NCBI GenBank assembly: GCA_021234155.1
Contig: JAJEKV010000102.1
Coordinates: 372,001 to 436,000, forward strand
Direction: 5' to 3'
DNA from: Isoetes taiwanensis
Lineage: Eukaryota; Streptophyta; Lycopodiopsida; Isoetales; Isoetaceae
Length of the DNA stretch: 64,000 nucleotides
In this document: positions 1 through 23,475 of the stretch, one piece after another
Position numbering within the stretch: the first letter of the stretch is position 1
How the letters are laid out: each line of letters starts with the position of its first letter
The notes under the pieces: model-generated
What the model was told of the DNA's origin: nothing
The model's input: only the letters and a program-made list of their open reading frames with translations
Database searches by the model: none
Program-made: the position numbers and the translations under genes

Positions 1-698
1 TAAGTCAATTTTGAGAATACCCTTGCTCCTTGGAGCTGGTCCATTAAATCATCTCGCCCTTGGCAATGCATACTTATTCTTTATCGTCGCTTGTTGAGTC
101 GGGCGATAGTCTATGCACATTCTTAAGCTCCCATCTTTCTTCTTCACAAAGAGTATAGGTGCTCCAAAAGGAGACACACTTGCTCTAATAAACCCAAGCT
201 CAAGCAATTCCTGGAGCTGCTTCTTGAGCTCTATCAATTTTGGGGTGCTCATTCTGTAAGGCGCCTTATTGCTGGTAGGCTTAGCATCTGGAGCTAATGT
301 GATCTCACATTCTACACCCCTATAAGGTGGTAGCTGCCGGATTTCATCCGGGAATACATCCTTAAATTCTGAGATGAGCCTTGCTACTGGCTTGGGCAAC
401 TGGTTCCCCTTTTGGTCGCTTCCATCCTACTTATTGGGCTCAATTGCCTCTAACCTCAAAATGCAATCCACCTTATTTCTTTCTATACTTTTCCTTAGGT
501 GCTTCGAGGAAATACACTGCATAGAAGGAGCTGCCTTCTTACCTTTCACTATGAATTTGGTGCCGTCATGGCGACTTCGTTGCGGTCACAATCAATCATG
601 GCTTTGGCTGGCTTCAAGAATTCCATGCCCACTATAAGGTCATACCTTCCAATTTCCATGACCTCTGCTCCCCATCGACCACTTACTTCCACTAAGGT
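1..698 (-). pseudogene. pol: Protease C-terminus and reverse transcriptase N-terminus, frame-broken
   Basis: At about 399-49 a minus-strand frame gives the N-terminal RT fingers of a Ty3/gypsy polymerase: a VFPDE-type linker, [16 protein letters not shown], the [16 protein letters not shown] stretch and CIDYR. A TGA at 49-51 ends it where related proteins continue, and the expected residues resume in the next frame to position 1, which indicates a small indel. Between 399 and 698 the retropepsin C-terminus is recognisable in a different frame from gag. The catalytic YxDD motif is beyond the left edge. The copy is defective here. Confidence 0.85.
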
Positions 699-2189
699 CT
701 ATGTCGAACGTGATCCTCCTCCCCTTAGTGTAAAATAATGGCCGTTTGCCATAGCAACCGGCCTTGGCTTAGACTTCAATACCTTATTCTTCATTAGGGC
801 AGCTAGCCCGAGAGGCGGGTTATGAGAACTACCTGTGTCTATGAGGACTACATATGGGTTGCTATCTATGATCCCATCAGCCGGAATGACTGATGACTGA
901 TTTTCAATATCACCTGACTCAATGTTTGCACATATGTGGCACTCACCATCTATGAAGTCCTGGGCCTCATGCTGGTCGTCGTCCTCATCCGCTTCTGTTG
1001 GTGAATCCCAATCCATAAGCTCTGCCAAACCTGCCTGCATGACGAATGGGCAATCATGTGTTCGGTGCCCTGGCTGGAAGCACCTGAAACATAGCTTCTT
1101 CTCGATACACTCTTGTCTCTTCTCTTTCGTCAGACTGTCTAGAATACGCTTTAGCACACTGCCCCCTGATGCATTCTGCGGCTTACGGTCCCCAAAGGTC
1201 TTACCCTGAGCTCTTCCCTGCTGCTGGCCTCCTGATGGCGTAGCTGCTGATTGCTTACTCTGGTACTGCCCTGAAGCTTTACCCTTGAAGGCCGACTGCT
1301 TCTCTGCTGGGATTGATGGTGCTTCTTCCAAACTTATGGCTTTATCCTCGGCTTCTGCCACTGACTTTGGGTTGATTGTTCGGACTAGCCTTTTGATATT
1401 GCTGTTCAACCCTTCAATGTAGGTATCAACCGCTTGTCTTTCTGATACTCCGGGAACATGGAGCCTGAGCCGCATAAATTCCTCTGTATACTTTGCTACT
1501 GACAATGTACCCTGGTTCAACCTATAGAACTGCTGGATTTGCCTGCTAGTGTGCGATCTTGGCACATAGTGCTTGCGGAAAGCTTTGCTGAAGGTCTTAA
1601 ATCTGCAACTGTTCCTTTTGAGCTTGTTAGACTTTGCATAGCCTTTCCACCAGATTCTAGCTGCTCCTATCAAGTTTGCTGTAGCAACTTTCTTTATATC
1701 CTTGTCCTTCATGCTATAAGAGTTGCCAAATTCCTCCATTTCGTCAAGCCAGGCTTCTGCCTCCATACCTGACCTGTCCTTTCCTGAGAACTGACCCAAC
1801 TTCCTAGTCTTCCACACATTGCTCATAGCACTGTCAACCTTCTTCTGATAGTCATCTGCCTTCCTTGTCCTGGCTCTTACCTGTGAAGTGTCAGACTCAC
1901 TTTCTGAGCTAGAACTGTCTTGGGTGTGCGAAGTGTCTGATGAACTGGAGCTAGGTGGTGTTGAAGTCCTTCTGTTTCTCCTTTTCCTCTTCCTGTCCTT
2001 GACATTTCCCTGGTTGTCTTGCCCCTCCTGCTGTGGACCTTCCTCAATGCCTTGCTGAGGTAGTGGTGGAGGTGTAGGTGGTGCAGGTGCATATTCTTGG
2101 GCATTCATCAATGGGGTGGCCCAATGGATCAGCTGATGCATCTGATTCCTCATCTGGACGAGCCTTGCGTTGATTGCTTCCGGCGTCAT
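699..2189 (-). CDS. gag: Gag with zinc knuckle and start of aspartic protease
   Basis: A 496-residue retroviral-type Gag. Residues 50-110 are basic and Ser-rich. A Retrotrans_gag core follows at about 125-290 (AEAWLDEMEEF, ATANLIGAARIWWKG, LRLHVPGVSERQAVDTYIEGL). A Gln/Gly linker precedes a CCHC knuckle, CFRCFQPGHRTHDC, at about 367-380. The pepsin-type active site DTGSSHN begins near residue 451, so gag and protease are fused. The frame stops at 699; the protease C-terminus (DLIVGMEFLKPAKAMID) continues in another frame at about 550-650, showing a frame break. The product packages the RNA genome into virus-like particles in relatives. Confidence 0.9.
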   Translation of the reverse strand: MTPEAINARLVQMRNQMHQLIHWATPLMNAQEYAPAPPTPPPLPQQGIEEGPQQEGQDNQGNVKDRKRKRRNRRTSTPPSSSSSDTSHTQDSSSSESESDTSQVRARTRKADDYQKKVDSAMSNVWKTRKLGQFSGKDRSGMEAEAWLDEMEEFGNSYSMKDKDIKKVATANLIGAARIWWKGYAKSNKLKRNSCRFKTFSKAFRKHYVPRSHTSRQIQQFYRLNQGTLSVAKYTEEFMRLRLHVPGVSERQAVDTYIEGLNSNIKRLVRTINPKSVAEAEDKAISLEEAPSIPAEKQSAFKGKASGQYQSKQSAATPSGGQQQGRAQGKTFGDRKPQNASGGSVLKRILDSLTKEKRQECIEKKLCFRCFQPGHRTHDCPFVMQAGLAELMDWDSPTEADEDDDQHEAQDFIDGECHICANIESGDIENQSSVIPADGIIDSNPYVVLIDTGSSHNPPLGLAALMKNKVLKSKPRPVAMANGHYFTLRGGGSRST

Positions 2190-2474: not shown

Positions 2475-3176
2475 TCAATACAATTTACTTGAGGACAAGG
2501 CAAATTCTTCCGTCATCGATGCCGCTTCATGGACTTGAAGAAGCTTCTTGAGATGTAACCCTTTGCCGACATTCTGCAAGATCCTTGCGGCTGATCCTCC
2601 TTCAAGTGCTCTAGCCATCTGGGGTGCTGGGAGTTCGGGTGCCGTTGCTGCCACTACTGACAAATGTGCATCCCTGAGGTGGCCCCTGGCGAAGTCGAGG
2701 CAGTGAAGAGCTACTGACCTCTTGAAAAGGATGACATGGTCCGATGCGTGGTCTAGTCTGGCGTGCTGCCCAAAGCCAGAGAGGGCTATGAGGAGCGCAA
2801 CAGACTCTTCTCCTCTTGGGCTAAACTCCCTGTGGAATACTATCATCTGCCCTTGGCTAAGAGCTGGAAGATAGTATCGAAGCGCCTTGCCTTTACCCGT
2901 GATGTTGGACCCTGTGCCTCTTCTGCCAGCTGCTTCCCCATAGATGTCTATTGCTACAAGGTCTTCATGGTCCCTCCACATTGTGGTAGCGTTCTCCAAG
3001 TTGATGTTGGCATGTGCCTCACGCGAACTCCTGGAACGGACTGGTCGGCTAGAGCTTGGACCCCTTCCTGGCTTATACAATCTGCTTTGTATCTGCTGGA
3101 ACTCTTCCTCTGGGATGACAGGTTCTTGTTGTCGATAGATCTCCCTTATCTGCTGATAGGCTTCTATATCTGACAT
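2475..3176 (-). CDS. Retrotransposon ORF3, unknown protein
   Basis: A 233-residue frame between ORF2 and gag. The N-terminus is Gln/Glu-rich (YQQIREIYRQQEPVIPEEEF), followed by a Ser/Arg stretch and an Ala/Leu/His-rich region that could be helical. No family was recognised. It shares the frame of ORF2 and gag with stops between them. The 285 nt between its stop and the gag start are AT-rich and hold nothing further that I can see. Confidence 0.5.
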   Translation of the reverse strand: MSDIEAYQQIREIYRQQEPVIPEEEFQQIQSRLYKPGRGPSSSRPVRSRSSREAHANINLENATTMWRDHEDLVAIDIYGEAAGRRGTGSNITGKGKALRYYLPALSQGQMIVFHREFSPRGEESVALLIALSGFGQHARLDHASDHVILFKRSVALHCLDFARGHLRDAHLSVVAATAPELPAPQMARALEGGSAARILQNVGKGLHLKKLLQVHEAASMTEEFALSSSKLY

Positions 3177-3197
3177 TGTCTGCCCGGCGTATGAGTG

Positions 3198-3917
3198 TCA
3201 CTCCGATAACTCCCTTGGAAATTCCTGGTAGGAGTAGTCGATGAAGTCACTGCCCTGCTCTTGTGCAATTAAGCCTAGGAGCTCGTCGATTCTGAGGCCT
3301 TCTTCTTGGCAATGGGGGAGGTTGAGGATGTCGTTAGCCAAGATGTACTCCTCGTCGTCGATGATCACTGGTGACATGGCTGTGATGCCAAGTGGTGGTT
3401 CGAAATCTCGCCTTAGTGTGCCTTTCCTTTGGCTATTTGCCTCTCCATCCTTGCTTGCTTCGCTCATTTCCCAACTTGGGTTCTCCTCCCCTTGTTGCTC
3501 GTAGTCTTGCTCAATCTGCAGCATGGGTGTTGCCGAGGTGGAACCGTAGTACTCGTACTCCGTGGACTCGATTTCGTGGATGCTGATCTGCTCCCTTTGG
3601 GTGTCGAGAGGTGCTAGATCTAAGGGCTGAATTGACGGCTCCCCTGGTTGGTTGACTGCCTTGTACTGCATGAACAAAGCTAAGGCGGCTTGGTTTGAGA
3701 GGTATCTGTGCCTATGATGCTTACAGGTCATGTAGTCTGGCATGCTTCTGGTTCTATCCCACACCTTATTCTTGGCCTTAGCTCCCCCACCTATGGCTTG
3801 GGTCAGAGAGTCTAAAGAAACCCATTTCCCTCCCCTAGGTGGCAAGCTAACTTCCCAGGGTAGTATCTGCTGGTCATATTGGCAAATGATGTCGGTGTAA
3901 TAGGGAGTCCTAGTCAA
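3198..3917 (-). CDS. Retrotransposon ORF2, unknown protein
   Basis: A 239-residue frame in the same reading frame as ORF1, ORF3 and gag. It contains a Trp/Pro/Gly-rich N-terminus (LPWEVSLPPRGGKWVSLDSL), a basic Cys/His stretch (CKHHRHRYLSNQAALALF) and an acidic Glu/Gln-rich C-terminal half. No catalytic motif or known domain was recognised. A TGA and eight sense codons separate its end from the ORF3 start, so the two could derive from one longer frame. Its location inside the element makes it a retrotransposon accessory or gag-precursor protein by inference. Confidence 0.55.
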   Translation of the reverse strand: MTRTPYYTDIICQYDQQILPWEVSLPPRGGKWVSLDSLTQAIGGGAKAKNKVWDRTRSMPDYMTCKHHRHRYLSNQAALALFMQYKAVNQPGEPSIQPLDLAPLDTQREQISIHEIESTEYEYYGSTSATPMLQIEQDYEQQGEENPSWEMSEASKDGEANSQRKGTLRRDFEPPLGITAMSPVIIDDEEYILANDILNLPHCQEEGLRIDELLGLIAQEQGSDFIDYSYQEFPRELSE

Positions 3918-4311
3918 TGTGGCGTGGAGATCAAAGAGGTGGTCGAAGACATGGAAAGCTTGGTCGGCAGGAAAATCACGGATGTGATTGGCGCCATCTG
4001 ATAAAGTGTGAGGGCACCATTGAGCAGAAAAGAGTATGAAAAATGGCTGATGAGGACAAGCAAGAAGCTAGAAAATCGCCAAAAGGACTGAGAGCAATTT
4101 TGATGGTGGGAAAATGACAAATGAGGGCCCTTTTTATAGGCTAGGGGTGCCTCGGGTTCCGTGCACAAGGTTTCTTGATGTGGACGGACTTTGTTCAAAG
4201 GCTATGGATGTCCAAATGAGCTACCATGAAGTGCAATTCTAAGCAAAACAAAGCAAGAAACACTACATGGCAGGTTGCTGGGTCAAAATTGGTCAAATTA
4301 GGCCAAAAAGG

Positions 4312-4590
4312 GCCGTCCGGGACGGTCCACGCGAACGGGCCTTCCGAAACTGTTGGAAAGGGCTTTGGCGCGGACCCACCCGGTTTCGCGATTTTTGAAG
4401 CAAATTTGACGAATTTTTGAGGTTGGAAAGATCCTAACATGACTAATTGATCAATTCTAGCCTAGCATGCAACTTTTCTTGAGCAAAACGGACACCTACA
4501 GGCGAAATAGGGACGGTCCGCGCGAACGGGCCTTCCGAAACTGTCGGAAAGGAGTTTGGCGCAGACCGATCCGGTTTCGCAATTTTTTGC
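4312..4590. repeat. Direct repeat with hairpin-forming GC-rich arms in the retrotransposon leader
   Basis: About 80 bases are repeated at 4312-4395 and 4511-4590 with few differences. Each copy holds GGGACGGTCC-type palindromes and a stem from TTCCGAAACTGT plus GGAA. They lie between ORF1 and ORF2 of the gypsy element. An RNA-structure role (packaging, translation or splicing) is possible but unproven. Confidence 0.55.
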
Positions 4591-4884
4591 TCAGAAGAAA
4601 AATTTTTCTAATTAGGGGTAAATACAAAAAATTTTAGTACAATTTGACTTCTCTAACTACCTTTTAACATCAATTTTTCAAGACAAGAATTATATTATAC
4701 CAAAATTTTAGTTACAGGTACAAAATTAGGAGGTTCTAGGGTACTCCTTGCGGATTCTCCGCGCCAAGTAGAGGTCCTTGGGCATTACGGTCACCCTCTT
4801 GGCGTGAATTGTGCATAAGTTGCCCTCCTCAAAAGTTGGGTCCTCTCGCCGGCTGCCACCGCAGGACCCGTGGTCGCCGAGATG

Positions 4885-5408
4885 TCACTCTATAGTCGGT
4901 GGATTTAACTCCTCGTGATAACTTCCATCGATCGCTTCGAAGGGAGCCTTCGACGATCGGAGATTAGTGCAACTGCTTTGGAAGTGCCTAATCTCCCGGA
5001 AAACGCAGCGCGGCGCGCGAATTAGGCCCATGGTGGACCTTCTTCGGCTTCGGACGTGCGGTGGTAACCCGGCTGGTCCTTCTTCGGTAGGCCGCCCTTG
5101 GCGTAGCGCTCCGTTACGCTTGCAATACCAATCGTTGTACCTCGTCCAGCGGCGAAGGTACTCTAGTATGCCTTCAGCGGCTTTGAATTCCACGATCCTC
5201 TCGGGCGCGAATGCTGCTTTCGCCCACCTTACCTTCTTGACTACCGCCGGTGGCAGGCCGCCGGGTAGGGTGGGCGTGCGTTGGGGTCTGATGGCTCCCC
5301 AACGTCTTCCTCTTCCTCCTCCGCTTCCTCCTCCTGCTCCTCGTTGCCCCCGCCTCCTCCTTCCTCTTCCTCCTCATTTTGCTCCCGGGCCGAGGGTTCT
5401 TCAATCAC
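4885..5408 (-). pseudogene. Downstream coding remnant of ORF1 (acidic run, then unknown domain)
   Basis: Directly after the ORF1 stop the same frame stays open for about 50 codons and is dominated by Glu and Gly. It then closes, and another minus-strand frame carries a better protein-like stretch ending at 4885 (VVKKVRWAKAAF, ILEYLRRWTRYNDWYCKR). I do not recognise this second part. The pattern fits an originally longer ORF1 product, acidic middle and folded C-terminus, broken by a frameshift or joined by splicing. Confidence 0.4.
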
Positions 5409-5873
5409 TTACAGGTCCTTGAGGCTGTCGTTTCTTCTCTTCGTTCGCCGCTCCTTCTCGAGCAGCTCCCTCAACCTCTTCTTTCTTGCTGCCGTTTCTT
5501 CTGGCCACTCTGCAACCTTCTCCTTGCCCTTTTTCTTTGGTGCCGAAGGGCCCGCCTCTTGAGTTTGGTGCTGGGGCTGCTTCTCCACCTGTTCTTCCAC
5601 CTGCTCCACCTCGGTGTCCGACGGAGGCCCAAAGTGACGGGACTCGCCGGTTCTCTGGGTGCCCGCCGACGAAGAGCTACCGCTGCTGCTAGGCGCCTCC
5701 TCCTCAGCGTCATGGAAGGTTTCATCGCTACTGCTGGAGGAAAAGGCCCCTTCCCCCGGCTTAGGTCGAAGGTGCTCAGGGATCTTCTTGACATGGCGAC
5801 CTGCTGCTAAGTGCGCCATCGAGAGCGTAGGTCGCTCGCCCGCCTTCCTGGCTGTCTGCTTCGTGCGTGCCAT
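5409..5873 (-). CDS. Retrotransposon ORF1 with histone H3 N-terminal tail mimic
   Basis: A 154-residue frame, the first after the primer-binding site (568-nt leader). After the initiator Met it begins ARTKQTARK, identical to residues 1-9 of mature histone H3, including K4 and K9. H3 S10 is replaced by A. A second H3-like patch follows at residues 26-38 (RHVKKIPEHLRP), resembling the K36 region of H3 (GVKKPHRFRP). The rest is not a histone fold: a Ser/Glu-rich acidic stretch (about 45-75), a Gln/Glu stretch, then a basic charged helix-like end (EETAARKKRLRELLEKE). The stop overlaps a GTAAGT splice-donor consensus (5407-5412), and the same frame continues after the stop as a Glu-rich run, so splicing or readthrough is possible. 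Function is unknown; chromatin-reader or writer recruitment is inference. Confidence 0.8.
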   Translation of the reverse strand: MARTKQTARKAGERPTLSMAHLAAGRHVKKIPEHLRPKPGEGAFSSSSSDETFHDAEEEAPSSSGSSSSAGTQRTGESRHFGPPSDTEVEQVEEQVEKQPQHQTQEAGPSAPKKKGKEKVAEWPEETAARKKRLRELLEKERRTKRRNDSLKDL

Positions 5874-6440
5874 ACTTAACGGTCTAGAAAACGGGTGACG
5901 TAAGGCTGATCAAGAGAGATAAGGTGGAGGAAACGTTTGGAGGGAAAATGAGGTGGCAAGACTATTTAAAGAGGAGGGTCCCTGGGAATATTCTCCTACC
6001 ATTAATAGGCCTACTTATTAGCCCCCCTTATTAATTACACCAAAGTACCCTTATTATTAGCATATATTTAATTTCTAATATACATACTTAAATTCGTATT
6101 ATACCTTTAGAATTTCAAATTTCCTAATAGTTTGAAGTATTAATTATGGATTTGCGCCATTTTTCACTCGGGTCTCAGATTGGCATAGTTCTTTGACCCA
6201 TTTTAGGTGAAATTTGATGCAGGTGCATAATTTTTACTCCAATTTTACTAGAAGATGAATTTGACTCATTCATTTCTTCGTCTAATACTTAACCTAATTC
6301 CGGACCCACTACTTAGGAGAAAAAATTTTCCTCCCATTTTCAAGGTTCAATGGTGGAAATTTTTATTTCACACCCCTATAGGTTTGTTAGACTACTTTCA
6401 TGGTTATGGTTAGTGCTAGTTCCTGGTCAACCAAGAACAT

Positions 6441-6453
6441 CGCTCTGATACCA
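6441..6453 (-). other. Primer-binding site (initiator tRNA-Met)
   Basis: On the minus strand this reads TGGTATCAGAGCG, the standard plant retrotransposon primer-binding site for initiator tRNA-Met. It lies one base inside the LTR edge. It sets the orientation of the element and shows that the open frames at 5873 and below are internal to the retrotransposon. Confidence 0.9.
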
Positions 6454-6454
6454 T

Positions 6455-8076
6455 TGTGACGCTCCTCGCTAAAATATCGACCGTACCGCACACTCTAGTA
6501 GAAATTCCCGTCCGGCTCAACAACCACACAGGCCCTTCGTCTATCCCGCACACTGAGATGATCGCAGTGCGGGAAGGGGACAAAGGTGTCTTGCGCGCCC
6601 TTCCCCTATGGGCTCCTATCACAGCGGAAGCACAACATCGTCAGAACTAGCAAATAGCAATACCTCATACTACCCCGAAGGGTAGTCCATCAACATATCC
6701 ATAGATGCAAAGAACATGATCACATGCCATAAAACGTGAGAGCTCCTACCCGTGGCTCCGACACATAAGGAAGTCGACTGACAGGATAGGCCTCAAGATA
6801 GAGCAGACCGAGTCATAACAATGGCGGGGCTGGCATAAGACAATGGCTAGGGTTGACCACTCCATCCGCCCCCCTCATGTGCATACTTTGCGGATGGGCT
6901 GAATCGGGGCTCGCATGACTCTAACCTTCCGGATCATAATCCCATGGTATCACCCATGGGACTACTCCAGTTGCATCTCCCCCGGGTCCGTTGAGGTAGG
7001 AGGGGTTGCATCTCCCCTTCCCCGGTCTAGAGGCTCCACAGGCGGCTAGAGAATCGTGGCGACACATGATTAGAATGTGAACCCCCAAAACAAGAGCCAA
7101 GCCGACACTTGCAACTCTTGAGAGGCGGGCGACACCTTCTCCCGAGGAGGTGTCGGACCCATGCCGGCCCACACAGTGTGAGCCATAAGCCTAGCCTTGT
7201 GGGATCCCCAGAGCCCCCCTCGGGGGGATCCTCCCTCCATCTTGCCTCTAGCCCCGTTGTGTAGTCCTGAGTCACTCCATAGCCTCCATAGCCCGGTGGG
7301 TTCCTATGCACAGGCCGCAACTAATAGGAACTAAGGGATCTACGCTAGGAGCATACTACATATGGCCCTAGGTCTCTACCCCCCTTCCCAATACAAGAGG
7401 AGCAACATGATCAACCAAACATCACATACATCCCATCATGATCAATATCATATGAACATCTTAACCTAATCATACATATCTAACTAATAGTTAGGGTTCC
7501 TTGATTAGGGTTCAAGATGTTCAACAAAGGTTCTAGGGTGGCTCTATACTAGATACGAAATACTAACCCATCTGGAGTGCTAACTTCCAGATGAACTAAC
7601 ATGAACTCTACTCAACCTACCTCCTCCAGGCGCTTCCTCCCATCCACAGGCGTCTCCATGCTCCCTTGGCGTGGTTCAAGACTTGCTCCCTCAACGATCA
7701 TACACACCTTCCGTGGGCCGCTCCGAGGCTAGGCTATGATTTAACGGCGCCAAACGGGGTTTCGGGCACGTAGATGAGAGTTCAGGTGCTAGGTCAGGAA
7801 AAAAAGGGTCTAGGGTTAGGGTTAGAGCTAATATAGGTGTGGGTCCATTGGGATGCCAATGGCGGCACCACTAATTTGAGGCCGTGTGGCGGTTGCCCAA
7901 TAGGATGAGGCCATGTGGAAATGGGCCTTATCCTAAGGTTATCTAAGTTAAGTAATTAACTTAGATGTGCACCCCTTGCCACTTTCTAAGGCATACAAGG
8001 CTACCTAGGTAGACTTGTATGGTGACGGGTTCAGGAATATACGTATTTATAGCGTATATTCCCCTGGAACGTCACA
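6455..8076 (-). repeat. 5' LTR of the Ty3/gypsy element
   Basis: The segment is bounded by TGTGACG and CGTCACA, the TG...CA ends expected of an LTR. The low-coordinate end abuts, after one base, a sequence complementary to the 3' end of initiator tRNA-Met, which fixes it as the 3' edge of a minus-strand 5' LTR. Length is 1622 bp. A related LTR-like stretch lies in opposite orientation at about 9640-11056. Open frames inside are not considered genes. Confidence 0.85.
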
Positions 8077-9640
8077 TTTAATGCTGTGATGAATAATAAA
8101 TCTAGATTGCGCCGAATTTGAATAACACTGGATAAGGCCTGCTAGACTGACATCTTTAAACTTTTAAGCAATTTGCATAATGCAACCTAAGCAATCAGTT
8201 CTATGTGACTGGAACAAAGTCGGATGAACTATATTATCTATCCAATGCAGGGGATGGAGAGAAGAAACATGGGCATTCTTCTGCCTAAAATAATGAAAAT
8301 GCTTCAGAATTAAATGATTCAAAACTACTTCCTGTATCAACAATCTGTGGCATTGAAAGTAGAAATACCTTCAAAACAAAAATGCAATATGCTGGCTATC
8401 CTTGACTCTTAGAAAATATGGAATTGTAAAGCTTTGTCAATGCTTTATTACCTCATGCAAACCTAAATTTGGATGAAACCCCTTGCAGCAAAATCTAATG
8501 CGAGAGCCTTATCTCATAAAAGCCTTATCTCTAAAACCTTGGCAAAGAAAATCTAATGCAAAGACAACTTATCTCTAAACCTTCAAGATTCCAAATCAAA
8601 TCAAGCATGAAAAAACCATAAAGCTCTAAGAAGCATAAAACCTACAATAGTCTAGTCCAATCAAAGAGAAGATTTTTGAGAAGTGGTGAAAATTTAAGAA
8701 AGCGAACAAACTTACATTGAGCTTTCACTTGTCCAACTCCAATTTCTCCAATATGTTTGACCCTGCACAATTCAACTAACCATAAAGATTGAAAGATTGA
8801 ATGATTGAAAAAATACTGGTTTTTGTGAGGTCCTGTTATAAAAGAAAATGCAAGACTCCAAAGAAATCATACCTCAAGTTTCATATTTGAGCAAAACTTC
8901 CAACCCAATGAGTTTCAACAAAGCCCGCTTCAAATGTCGTATGTGATCTGCAATAGCAAAATTGTCTTCAGCAGAGAACATAGTTACAAAGTTGCATGAG
9001 GATTCAACAAAAAAAGTAAGGCTTCACAGAAATTAAGAAGTCACTTGAAAAATTCATAAATAAATTCTTTTTCACTTAAGAAGATAATTATAAACAATAC
9101 TTACAGTTTCGAATCCAAATGCATCCATAGTAAAATCCTTCTTGGAACAGTTTGAATCTTAATCAAGGTTAAGAAAATCTTGCAGTAAAATGGAACAAAA
9201 TATTTGCAGTATCCCAATGTTGAAGGTACCATACATGAGCTTTAGGGTTTGAAGAACTTTCTACATGAAGCGACAATCCAGACCTTAACACATTTTGATC
9301 AGATCCTCACCTCACGACTTTGGCAATGCGGCATACAGAAATAGGCATGGGGTGATAATTCGGCATACAGAACTGTCTGTCTTGCAGCCATCCGGATAGC
9401 GGCAAAGGTCAAAGAGCTGCAGAAAATATTGTTACGCTTGCCCAAACCCCATTCTGGCAGGGCAGTGTTCCATCCCAAAAATCCTCTCAGCAAGACGCCG
9501 CCCTGTAGGGCAGAACTTCAAGCTAGGAACTGGCAAAGGAAACAACCAGACATGAGCTACTCCCCATCCATCTGGCTCGAAGGAAAACTCCACCAGAGAT
9601 TTGAGATCTTCTATCCTAGGCATCCACGGCATCGACGCTC
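8077..9640. other. Spacer without recognised gene
   Basis: AT-rich sequence between the 5' LTR and the second LTR-like block. Short open frames at 9299-9650 overlap on both strands and show no protein-like features. I see no gene, repeat or structure that I can support. Confidence 0.5.
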
Positions 9641-12420: not shown

Positions 12421-12845
12421 CCAAATGGGACACTATGTACTATATATTTTTCAATAAGCACAATATCCTATATTATGTATTTTCCAATAACCACAATATT
12501 CTATGCATTTTTTTTTATGAAAAATGCCCTCTCCATATATTACTATATATTTTTCAATAAGCACAATATCCTATATTATGTATTTTCCAACAACCACAAT
12601 ATTCTATGCATTTTTTTTATGAAAAATGCCCTCTCCATATATTACTATATATTTTTCAATAAGCACAATATCCTATATTATGTATTTTCCAACAAGCACA
12701 ATATTCTATGCATTTTTTATGAAAAATGCCCTCTCCATGTATTACTATATATTTTTTAATAAGCACAATATCCTAATATTATGTATTTTCCAATAACCAC
12801 AATATTCTATGCATTTTTATGAAAAATGCCCTCAACATGTATTTC
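12421..12845. repeat. Minisatellite, unit about 110-120 bp
   Basis: About four near-identical units, each with ACTATATATTTTTCAATAAG, CACAATATCCTATATTATG, ACCACAATATTCTATGCA and ATGAAAAATGCCCTC. Variation is mostly poly-T length. The open frame at 12475-12759 is only this repeat read through. Confidence 0.85.
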
Positions 12846-21559: not shown

Positions 21560-23475
21560 TCAGAAATTTATCATCACACTAGGGCCTAAACCAACAATTT
21601 TATTAAAACAATGCTGCCCTAGCTTGATATCACCATGCAATTTACAAGCATTAAGCAATGACATAAAACACATAATATTGGTGAGGCAAAAGCTATGGAG
21701 GAAATCTTCCGCCTCGTCAATGAATCCTGGATGTCCCAAGAGATCGACCATGCATGCACAATGGGAAACCGTTGGTAGAACATAGAAATAGTTTTGCATA
21801 CATACAAAATGCCAACAACTTTCATCAACCAGGCCCGCATGACTGCATGCTACAAGAACATTAGTCAATGAGACTACATCTGCATTTATTCCTTCATATT
21901 GCATCTTCCCAAAGCAGTTCAAGGCAAGGCATCCCTGCCCATTCTGAGAATACCCTGCAATCATTGCATTCCATGTTACTACATTTCGACTTGGTAATTT
22001 AATAAATACATTATAAGCCTCTTCTGGGTTCCCACATTTGGCATACACATTCACCAAAGCATTCCCCAAAAGAATGTCCACTTCACCTCCATTGTCAATT
22101 ATCTGCCCATGGATAAATCTTGCTTGACCTAAAGCTCCTATCCTAGCACATGCATTCAAAACAAGAATGCAGATGACATAATCTTGCTTTACTCCTTCTA
22201 TTTGCATTCTCTCAAAGCATTCTATAGCAAGGCAAGCTTCTTCATGTTCTGTGTATCCTGCAATTAAGATTCCCCAAAGCACAACATCATGACTGAGCAA
22301 TTTGTTGAAGGCTTTATGTCCCTCGTTTAGGTGGCTACATTTGGCATACATATCCACCAATGCACTGCCAATGATAGAATCATATTCAATCCCACGTTGA
22401 ACAATTTGGGTGTGAATGATTCTGCCTTGCTCAATTGCTCCAAGTTTTGCACATGCCTTTAAGATGATCAGAAATGTTACTTTTGATGGGTTCATGCCTT
22501 CATGTTGCATCTTGTAAAAGTAATCAAGAGAAATTATGGGATTTCCACCTTCTGCAAATCCAGCAATGATCACATTCCAAAGCACTTCATCTGGGTTTTG
22601 ACAATGCGCTGAACACTAGTAACGCTTCTTCCAGACCTCCACATTTAACATACATATCAATTAAAGAACTTTGTAACATCTGATCAAGGTGGAGCCTGCT
22701 TTTGTATGATGTTTCCATGGACGAGTCTACCTTCCTTTAATGCTCCCAGATGACTACATCCTTTTAATACACCCAAAATGTAACTTTGTTTGGCTCAAGC
22801 CCCTCCTGCTGCATCTTACAGAAACATTCTAACCCCAAAAGCGGCTCGCCATGCTGCATATAGCCAGAAATCATTGTTCCCCATGAGATTACATCATGGT
22901 TCAAGTTCTTGAAAACGGCGTATGCCTCCTCCAGACTTCCGCATTTGGCATACATATCAACTAATGCATTGCCAACAACAACATCTGGTTGGAGTCCACT
23001 TTCAACAATCTGGCAGTGGATATATCTTCCCTGCATGACATCTTCACGCATCCCACATGCCTGTGTAATGGACACATTAACATAATTATCGCCTTCGATG
23101 CCTAATCTATGCATTCTATGGTATAATTCAAGGGATATGTCACTGTGTCCCAGCACTGAATTTGCTCCAATAATTGCAGACCATGTATATGGAGACGGTT
23201 TTGTAATTTTACTAAATGCAGTAGTTGATTCAACCAAATGCCCATGATATGAAAAACAACCTAATGAGATGGTCACCCAATACTGCAATCGAACAGAGTT
23301 CTGTAGGAGTGATAAGAAATTGAACTCGCCTGGTAGAGTTGAGATTTTTTGTGTTCTCACAAGCTTGCAGAAGACAATAAGCATTATTTCTGGTAATACA
23401 ATTTCCTTGCCCATCCAGAGCTTCTGCAGCTTCAAGTAATTCTTGCAGTCCTTGTTCTCCATAAATCCGACTCAA
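21560..23475 (-). pseudogene. Pentatricopeptide repeat (PPR) protein, PLS-like, broken
   Basis: Two long minus frames (23462-22764 and 22585-21560) read as one PPR protein. Successive repeats have the signatures VVGNALVDMYAKCGSLEEAY, VFKNLNHDVISWGTMISGY, GLEPNKVTF, ALVDMYAKCSHLNEGHKAF and NVVTWNAMIAGYSQNGQGCL. The end resembles the E-domain approach (MVDLLGHPGFIDEAEDFL, LLNACKLHGDIKLG). PPR proteins bind organelle RNA in chloroplast or mitochondria. The segment 22590-22760 is homologous PPR sequence in shifted frames, so at least two indels disrupt it. The N-terminus appears in a third frame (GEQGLQELLEAAEAL at 23475). Past 21560 the expected E domain is not readable. A 5' copy lies inverted at 31528-32360. 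Confidence 0.9.

What the first reader, a model, noticed from the sequence alone, without database searches (positions are those of the whole stretch)
5409..5873. Retrotransposon ORF that starts with an exact histone H3 tail
After Met removal the protein would expose ARTKQTARK, identical to H3 residues 1-9 with K4 and K9, then a second patch (RHVKKIPEHLRP) like the H3 K36 region. The remainder is acidic/basic low complexity, not a histone fold. Nine exact residues at the true N-terminus, followed by a second collinear match, are very unlikely by chance. The element is tRNA-Met primed and chromovirus-like; chromoviral integrases often carry chromodomains that read H3K9 methylation. The mimic could therefore engage its own integrase, or titrate host H3K4/K9 writers and readers that silence transposons. 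S10 is replaced, so the K9 mark would not be subject to a phospho-switch.
Basis: partly seen in the sequence, partly recalled or inferred. Interest (0 to 1): 0.95.

Follow-up and report, generated by a model that had tools for sequence, protein, structure and literature searches.

The report
Retrotransposons carrying their own histone H3
A plant jumping gene turns out to carry its own version of histone H3, a protein that packages DNA, and sequence comparisons suggest that selection has kept it, so a genomic parasite may make a building block of its host's chromatin.

Summary
Window 5409-5873 (-) encodes MARTKQTARK at a true start, yet this ORF is the broken front of a longer gene. In open relatives from the same genome (1.658 Gb, very probably the quillwort Isoetes taiwanensis) it is 360-385 aa: H3 tail, ~220-aa charged linker, complete histone H3 fold (PF00125, E=5.6e-30). 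The window keeps a frame-broken remnant of that fold at about 4738-5253.

The carrier is a ~13-kb Ty3/gypsy chromovirus: LTRs, 5-bp TSD, tRNA-Met PBS, H3 ORF, unknown ORF2, gag-pro-RT-RH-IN, chromodomain. A second, diverged family in the same genome also encodes a C-terminal H3 fold (up to ~89% identical to host H3) upstream of an ORF2 homologue. Each search scored only 150 of 3,822-9,505 candidate places.

Tail (dN/dS 0.04) and folds (0.03-0.07) look under purifying selection. Recalled tetramer and most DNA contacts are kept; the chaperone motif is not. So it is a captured histone, not only a tail mimic. Whether it enters nucleosomes is untested. Nearest precedent found: an H3-like gene in a fungal hAT DNA transposon. 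My searches found no report of an LTR retrotransposon encoding a histone.

The parts
8077..8081 (.). target-site duplication TTTAA (other copy next to the far LTR, left of the window)
   Evidence: TTTAA borders both outer LTR ends
6455..8076 (-). 5' LTR, 1622 bp, TGTGACG..CGTCACA; its partner LTR lies left of the window, split by a 10.7-kb insertion with CACTA-type ends, its two pieces 92.7% and 94.3% identical to this LTR
6441..6453 (-). primer binding site TGGTATCAGAGCG (tRNA-Met type, by recall)
5409..5873 (-). open front part of ORF1: H3 tail (codons at 5844-5873), neck and part of the linker; truncated copy of the H3-variant gene
4738..5253 (-). frame-broken remnant of the ORF1 back half including the histone H3 fold (matches residues 201-375 of an open relative)
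4319..4587 (.). two 78-nt direct repeats (90% identical) in the spacer between ORF1 and ORF2
2541..3998 (-). ORF2 (507 aa in an open relative), no Pfam family; broken into pieces here
229..2153 (-). gag (PF03732), weak zinc-knuckle match and aspartyl protease
1..120 (-). start of reverse transcriptase; RT, RNase H, integrase and chromodomain pieces continue left of the window (L009)

Best explanation
A Ty3/gypsy chromovirus lineage in this plant took up a histone H3 gene long ago and has kept it as an element gene (ORF1, upstream of gag, followed by ORF2). SHOWN here by sequence: tail, linker and complete H3 fold in one ORF; two diverged families with ORF1 followed by related ORF2s; dN/dS far below 1; retention of residues recalled as H3-H3 tetramer contacts and of most recalled DNA contacts; change of the recalled H3 chaperone motif. 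INFERRED: one single capture; the protein enters the nucleus, pairs with host H4 and forms variant nucleosomes or tetrasomes that the element uses on its own DNA (the reverse-transcribed copy before or just after integration) or at target sites. The exposed H3 tail would still dock K4/K9 readers and writers, while the ~220-aa linker and altered deposition motif set it apart from host H3.
For: Histone fold: PF00125 E=5.6e-30; solved H3 chains matched at about 2e-30. Second family: PF00125 E=1.2e-41 in L078, core 86-89% identical to host H3 in the 3 ORFs measured. Selection: 25 family-1 ORFs, dN/dS tail 0.037, neck 0.17, linker 0.128, core 0.066 with dS 0.8-1.3; 7 family-2 ORFs, core 0.032 against N-part 0.126. 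Interfaces: C110, H113, A114, R116, D123, L126, I130 and R49, R63, K64, R69, R72, R83, K115-T118, K122 identical to host in the 2 family-1 and 2 family-2 sequences tabulated; positions 87-90 changed from SAVL to LTTR/LMTR or FAIL. Not recent capture or gene conversion of the tail: family-1 tail codons differ from every host H3 tail seen by 5-10 of 30 nt. ORF2 homologues lie downstream of the H3 core in 12 of 15 family-2 loci, 20-25% identical to family-1 ORF2. One copy has LTR pieces 99.2% identical over 732 bp, so activity was recent.
Against: No expression, localisation or nucleosome data. The tail is not uniquely constrained: its 9-codon window ranks 39 of 365 by pN/pS. Position 7 is often Y, and no H3 tail was seen in any of 15 family-2 loci; 14 of them have an MA-x-[TI]-K-type start instead. 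Family 1 has lost Y41, R42, T45, K53 and K56, which could weaken DNA-end wrapping. The window leader has 13 ATGs before the ORF1 start. AlphaFold models from 14-row alignments were poor (mean pLDDT 46.9 and 39.0), so no structure supports it. No gag or RT control was run for dN/dS, and low dN/dS is expected of any gene an active element needs; it does not by itself show nucleosome assembly. The contact residues are recalled, not taken from a call.
Confidence: 0.6

Rival explanations
1. Histone-tail decoy: the conserved N-terminus titrates or recruits H3K4/K9 readers and writers, and the fold merely localises or stabilises it.
For: K4 kept in 47 and K9 in 48 of 48 copies; tail dN/dS 0.037, with synonymous codon turnover.
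Against: The fold is constrained at a similar level and keeps recalled tetramer and DNA contacts. Family 2 keeps only the fold, not the tail. A7 is Y in 7 of 20 fold-selected copies, and K4 is lost in 2 and K9 in 3 of those 20. The chromodomain lacks two cage aromatics by my reading.
Confidence: 0.15
2. Family 1 captured (or converged on) the centromeric variant CENH3 and uses it to reach or mark centromeric chromatin, as centromeric retrotransposons do by other means.
For: REIRHFQxCTNLLI, LIRKAPF, RxT and RVTLM resemble plant CENH3 (recalled sequences). A tree with one plant CENH3 joined family 1 to it at bootstrap 100.
Against: With three plant CENH3s the AU test accepts every placement tested (p 0.33-0.72). 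Loop 1 has canonical length. Family 2 is plainly H3-like and shares C-terminal A135P and Y54F with family 1. The host CENH3 was not found.
Confidence: 0.12
3. ORF1 is a packaging protein: the basic histone fold compacts element RNA or cDNA inside the virus-like particle or pre-integration complex, without entering host nucleosomes.
For: Position upstream of gag; charged linker with the strongly constrained WTRYNDWYC motif; recalled DNA contacts kept.
Against: H3-H3 tetramer residues and a K4/K9 tail would have no obvious role in a particle; gag already has a zinc-knuckle-like motif (weak Pfam match, E=0.012).
Confidence: 0.1
4. Passive passenger: a transduced H3 gene without function.
For: TEs often pick up genes; many copies are broken (20 of 48 sampled lack a long open ORF1 by my ORF finder).
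Against: dN/dS 0.03-0.07 in tail and folds at high dS; module kept in two families whose ORF2s are only 20-25% identical.
Confidence: 0.03

Closest known systems
H3L in a hAT DNA transposon of the fungus Pyrenophora tritici-repentis (PMC3538342; passages read)
   Same: A mobile element carries an H3-like gene with insertions in the N-terminal tail and a variable histone fold that matches neither H3 nor CenH3 completely.
   Different: That is a DNA transposon in a fungus with 26 very similar genes and a recent spread, which the authors thought may have drifted. Here it is an LTR retrotransposon in a plant, with two diverged families and dN/dS far below 1.
Ty3/gypsy chromoviruses with group II chromodomain (PMC3350952; passages read)
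   Same: gag-PR-RT-RH-IN-chromodomain order; by my reading the chromodomain lacks Y24 and Y48.
   Different: Two extra ORFs upstream of gag, one a histone H3 variant.
Plant gypsy elements with acquired host domains, e.g. the m6A demethylase domain in Phalaenopsis elements (PMC9289625; passages and one section read)
   Same: Stable acquisition of a host domain as an additional ORF.
   Different: In the section read, a screen of 121 angiosperm genomes found 15 unusual domains; the nine named there do not include a histone. No lycophytes were in that screen.
Plant histone H3 and CENH3
   Same: Tail residues 1-9 (family 1), histone fold, recalled tetramer and DNA contacts.
   Different: ~220-aa linker between tail and fold (family 1) or a ~310-aa unrelated N-part (family 2); changed 87-90 motif; part of a retrotransposon.

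Membership tests
Histone H3 | core histone fold matching H3 | tested here: met
   PF00125 E=5.6e-30, PDB H3 chains E~2e-30, family 2 E=1.2e-41; sequence profiles only, the structure model was poor
Histone H3 | N-terminal tail ARTKQTARKS directly joined to the fold | tested here: not met
   ARTKQTARK present but S10 replaced and ~220 aa inserted in family 1; tail not seen in 15 of 15 family-2 loci. So: an H3-derived variant, not a canonical H3
Histone H3 | tetramer and nucleosome formation with H4 | not testable with these tools
   only recalled contact residues checked
CENH3 | groups with plant CENH3 in a tree | tested here: inconclusive
   AU test accepts all placements tried; CENH3 sequences typed from recall; host CENH3 not found
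CENH3 | centromeric localisation | not testable with these tools
   no CENH3 ChIP or mapped centromeres
Ty3/gypsy chromovirus | LTRs, TSD, tRNA primer site, gag-PR-RT-RH-IN order | tested here: met
Ty3/gypsy chromovirus | chromodomain after integrase | tested here: met
   PF00385 E=9.8e-11 in relative L014; matching pieces left of the window in L009
Ty3/gypsy chromovirus | RT phylogeny within a named clade (Tekay, Reina, CRM, Galadriel, Tcn1) | not tested
   no reference RT set used
Histone-tail mimic | H3-like peptide in an otherwise non-histone protein | tested here: not met
   open ORFs of relatives end in a full H3 fold

The most novel reading that the evidence does not exclude
LTR retrotransposons of this lycophyte make their own nucleosome-forming H3 variant, with an intact K4/K9 tail and a private deposition motif, and load it on their own DNA or on target or centromeric chromatin to control integration or escape silencing. 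The host's chromatin would then contain element-encoded histones on a large scale.
Probability: 0.35. Interest if true: 0.97.

Novelty: new variant of a known kind. Interest (0 to 1): 0.88.

Why it matters
Histones are among the most conserved eukaryotic proteins, and I knew of none encoded by an LTR retrotransposon, nor did my searches find one. A parasite that keeps its own H3 under selection makes it possible to ask directly whether transposable elements alter host chromatin from within. It also gives natural H3 variants, diverged at the chaperone motif but with the tail (family 1) and interfaces kept, for studying which parts of H3 matter for deposition, marking and silencing. If family 1 proves CENH3-derived, it bears on centromere drive and centromere colonisation by retrotransposons.

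Tried and rejected
Chance match: rejected, because relatives carry the whole H3 fold. Recent capture or gene conversion of the tail: rejected, 5-10 of 30 nt differ from every host tail seen. Tail as the most constrained part: not so, rank 39 of 365 windows. Origin from H3 or CENH3: not resolved. Structure prediction of ORF1 and ORF2 from 14-row alignments: poor models, no fold search made. ORF2 identity: no Pfam match, function unknown. Protein database searches: the window ORF alone found nothing at E<=1; of 1,964 hits to the full ORF the 120 listed cover 23-41% of it; the 120 listed of 6,906 hits to the core profile are core-histone proteins by their Pfam domains; six proteins opened from the two lists were H3 repeats or H3 joined to other sequence. 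No listed protein covers the linker, but the lists are capped. Literature: nine searches, one of them only for the genome paper, gave no report of an LTR retrotransposon encoding a histone; the library holds open-licence PMC papers only. Rows dropped: of 28 long ORFs, L035, L039 and L043 were left out of the dN/dS count (broken end or internal deletion). The family-1 ORF finder partly used MART as a marker, a bias checked with 48 copies not so filtered and with 20 copies chosen by the fold (picked by eye from 150 hits for a long open frame and for being absent). The family-2 ORF finder required an MA-x-TKS start, so 'no H3 tail' was re-tested without that filter; L076, open but starting MAITKR, was therefore not in the dN/dS count. 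Genome-wide counting of exact tails by pattern did not complete.

Full report
THE OBSERVATION. The ORF at 5409-5873 on the minus strand reads MARTKQTARKAGERPTLSMAHLAAGRHVKKIPEHLRP... for 154 aa. The first nine residues after Met equal H3 1-9.

THE GENOME. The window is held as part of a 1,658,258,908-base genome in 1,110 contigs. A paper gives 1658.30 Mb, 204 scaffolds and 909 unplaced contigs for Isoetes taiwanensis, a lycophyte (PMC8566536, passages). I infer that species; no tool names it.

THE ORF IS TRUNCATED, AND THE WHOLE GENE IS A HISTONE. A search of the genome with the 154 aa gave 3,822 first-look candidates; the 150 scored all matched, E from 1.6e-91 to 1.3e-52. In open relatives the ORF continues to 360-385 aa and ends ...[87 protein letters not shown] (L006). 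Pfam Histone matches residues 263-371 at E=5.6e-30, and solved H3 chains match at about 2e-30. In the window the same back half is present but frame-broken at 5253-4738. Of 48 loci (8, the first being the window copy itself; 40, from two parts of its ranking), 28 have an open ORF1 of at least 330 codons by my finder; two of these run into other sequence at the end (L035, L043) and one has an internal deletion in the fold (L039).

THE ELEMENT. LTRs of 1,622 bp (5' copy at 6455-8076), a TTTAA target duplication at both outer ends and a TGGTATCAGAGC primer site enclose the ORFs. The second LTR lies left of the window and is split by a 10,712-bp insertion with CACTACAAGAGAAT/ATTCTCTTGTAGTG ends and a GAC duplication, which I read as a CACTA-type DNA transposon. 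In relative L006, read from L012, the order is ORF1 (H3 variant), ORF2 (507 aa, no Pfam family), gag with a weak zinc-knuckle match, protease, RT, RNase H, integrase. The chromodomain was scored in another relative, L014 (PF00385 E=9.8e-11); a matching stretch stands in L012 behind a stop. Group II chromodomains lack Y24 and usually Y48 (PMC3350952, passages); LVKWKHL and EIVPELLLD fit that by my reading. LTR pieces are 99.2% identical over 732 bp in L006 (cut by the end of the fetched stretch), 94.2% in L007, and 92.7% and 94.3% in the window element. So the lineage was active recently and the window copy is older.

A SECOND FAMILY. Searching the genome with plant H3 gave 9,022 candidates; of the 150 scored, 15 are host H3 genes (96-98% identical) and 135 are 71-86% identical. 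I opened 15 of those 135. In 14 of the 15 an N-part starting MA-x-[TI]-K (MAITKS, MANTKS, MATTKS, MAITKR, MANTKT, MANIKS) is seen, and in none of the 15 an ARTK or TKQTA tail. Seven with an MA-x-TKS start are open for 408-421 aa through a near-canonical H3 fold; L076 is open too with MAITKR. The core is 86-89% identical to host H3 in the 3 measured, and PF00125 E=1.2e-41 in L078. An ORF2 homologue lies downstream in 12 of the 15, at 20-25% identity. L074 carries family-1-like ORF2 and gag-start sequence next to a family-2-like H3 core, from recombination or nesting. The shared module, C-terminal A135P and Y54F point to one old capture, but this is inference.

SELECTION. In 25 family-1 ORFs (3 of 28 left out), dN/dS is 0.037 for the tail, 0.17 neck, 0.128 linker and 0.066 core, with dS about 0.8-1.3. 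K4, Q5, R8 and K9 are 25 of 25, with two codons each except R8. In 48 copies read without that filter the exact tail stands in 38, K4 in 47, K9 in 48, and residue 10 is A, F, Y or P, never S. In 20 copies chosen by the fold, ARTKQTARK stands in 9, ARTKQTYRK in 7, other changes in 3, and 1 lost it (my count from the printout). Against overreading: by 9-codon windows the tail ranks 39 of 365, behind WTRYNDWYC in the linker and CAIHAKRVT in the fold; within the first 45 residues it is the lowest window (0.073, next 0.151). In 7 family-2 ORFs the core has 0.032 and the N-part 0.126; these were among the hits most like H3, which lowers the first value. No gag or RT control was run. Tail codons differ from all host tails seen by 5-10 of 30 nt, so protein identity is kept while DNA has diverged.

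WHAT IS KEPT IN THE FOLD. Residues that I recall as H3-H3 tetramer contacts, and eleven of twelve recalled DNA contacts, are identical to host H3 in the two family-1 sequences tabulated (R42 is S); all twelve are kept in the two family-2 sequences. Positions 87-90, recalled as the chaperone-selectivity motif, differ in both families; family 1 also replaces Y41, R42, T45, K53 and K56.

ORIGIN. One tree joined family 1 to a single plant CENH3 with strong support. With three plant CENH3s, the AU test accepts family 1 with CENH3, with H3, or with family 2 (p 0.33-0.72). CENH3 sequences were typed from recall and the host CENH3 was not found. Origin from CENH3 or H3 stays open.

MECHANISM. The most economical reading is a functional histone variant: nuclear, pairing with host H4, tail exposed. 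Whether it coats element DNA, marks target sites or alters host chromatin is inference; I favour use on the element's own DNA. The decoy-only reading must explain why the fold is constrained too and why family 2 kept only the fold.

KNOWN KINDS. The nearest precedent is H3L in a hAT DNA transposon of Pyrenophora tritici-repentis (PMC3538342, passages): 26 very similar genes, insertions in the tail, authors unsure of function. Plant gypsy elements with other captured domains are known (PMC9289625, passages and one section). A review of additional ORFs in plant LTR retrotransposons does not contain the word histone in its main text (PMC7264820, find). Nine paper searches found no LTR retrotransposon encoding a histone. 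I therefore call it a new variant of a known kind, TE-borne H3, and a strong one.

CORRECTIONS MADE ON CHECKING. The insertion in the far LTR was first taken for a related chromovirus; searches show CACTA-type ends, and the related chromovirus pieces in L010 lie beyond that LTR. The family-2 start was re-tested without the start filter. The worst E-value and the strength of the zinc-knuckle match were set right.

Noticed in passing
window 2541-3998 (-); L012 1900-3423; also downstream of the H3 core in family-2 loci such as L072, L077, L084: ORF2, 507 aa in L012, no Pfam match, present next to the H3 ORF in both families though only 20-25% identical between them; possibly a partner of the histone variant.
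   Followed up: partly
L010 4597 to L009 5308 (left of the window): A 10,712-bp insertion with CACTACAAGAGAAT inverted ends and a 3-bp GAC duplication splits the far LTR: looks like a CACTA (En/Spm-type) DNA transposon.
   Followed up: partly
window 4319-4396 and 4510-4587: Two 78-nt GC-rich direct repeats, 90% identical, 191 nt apart start to start, in the spacer between ORF1 and ORF2.
   Followed up: no
L010 1-3533 (+), beyond the far LTR: Pieces of a related chromovirus on the other strand, with RT, integrase and chromodomain matches.
   Followed up: no
L074: Family-1-like ORF2 and gag-start sequence lies beside a family-2-like H3 core: recombination or nesting between the families.
   Followed up: partly
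L040, L047, L052, L054 and 7 of 20 fold-selected loci (L090, L093, L095, L096, L097, L100, L104): A subfamily has ARTKQTYRK: A7 replaced by Y next to R8-K9, an unusual H3 tail variant.
   Followed up: partly
family-1 ORF1 residues 237-245 (L006 numbering): WTRYNDWYC in the linker is the most constrained 9-codon window of ORF1 (pN/pS 0.005); unknown motif, perhaps a partner-binding site.
   Followed up: no
window about 12434-12843: Repeats about 100 bp apart, 90-95% identical, as in a short tandem array.
   Followed up: no
window 21560-23462 (-): ORFs that look like PPR proteins, by eye.
   Followed up: no
one search hits, e.g. C1039 9.087-9.108 Mb and C1031 4.270-4.364 Mb: Several copies lie within 100 kb of each other, by eye; possible preference for certain chromatin, or duplication.
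   Followed up: no
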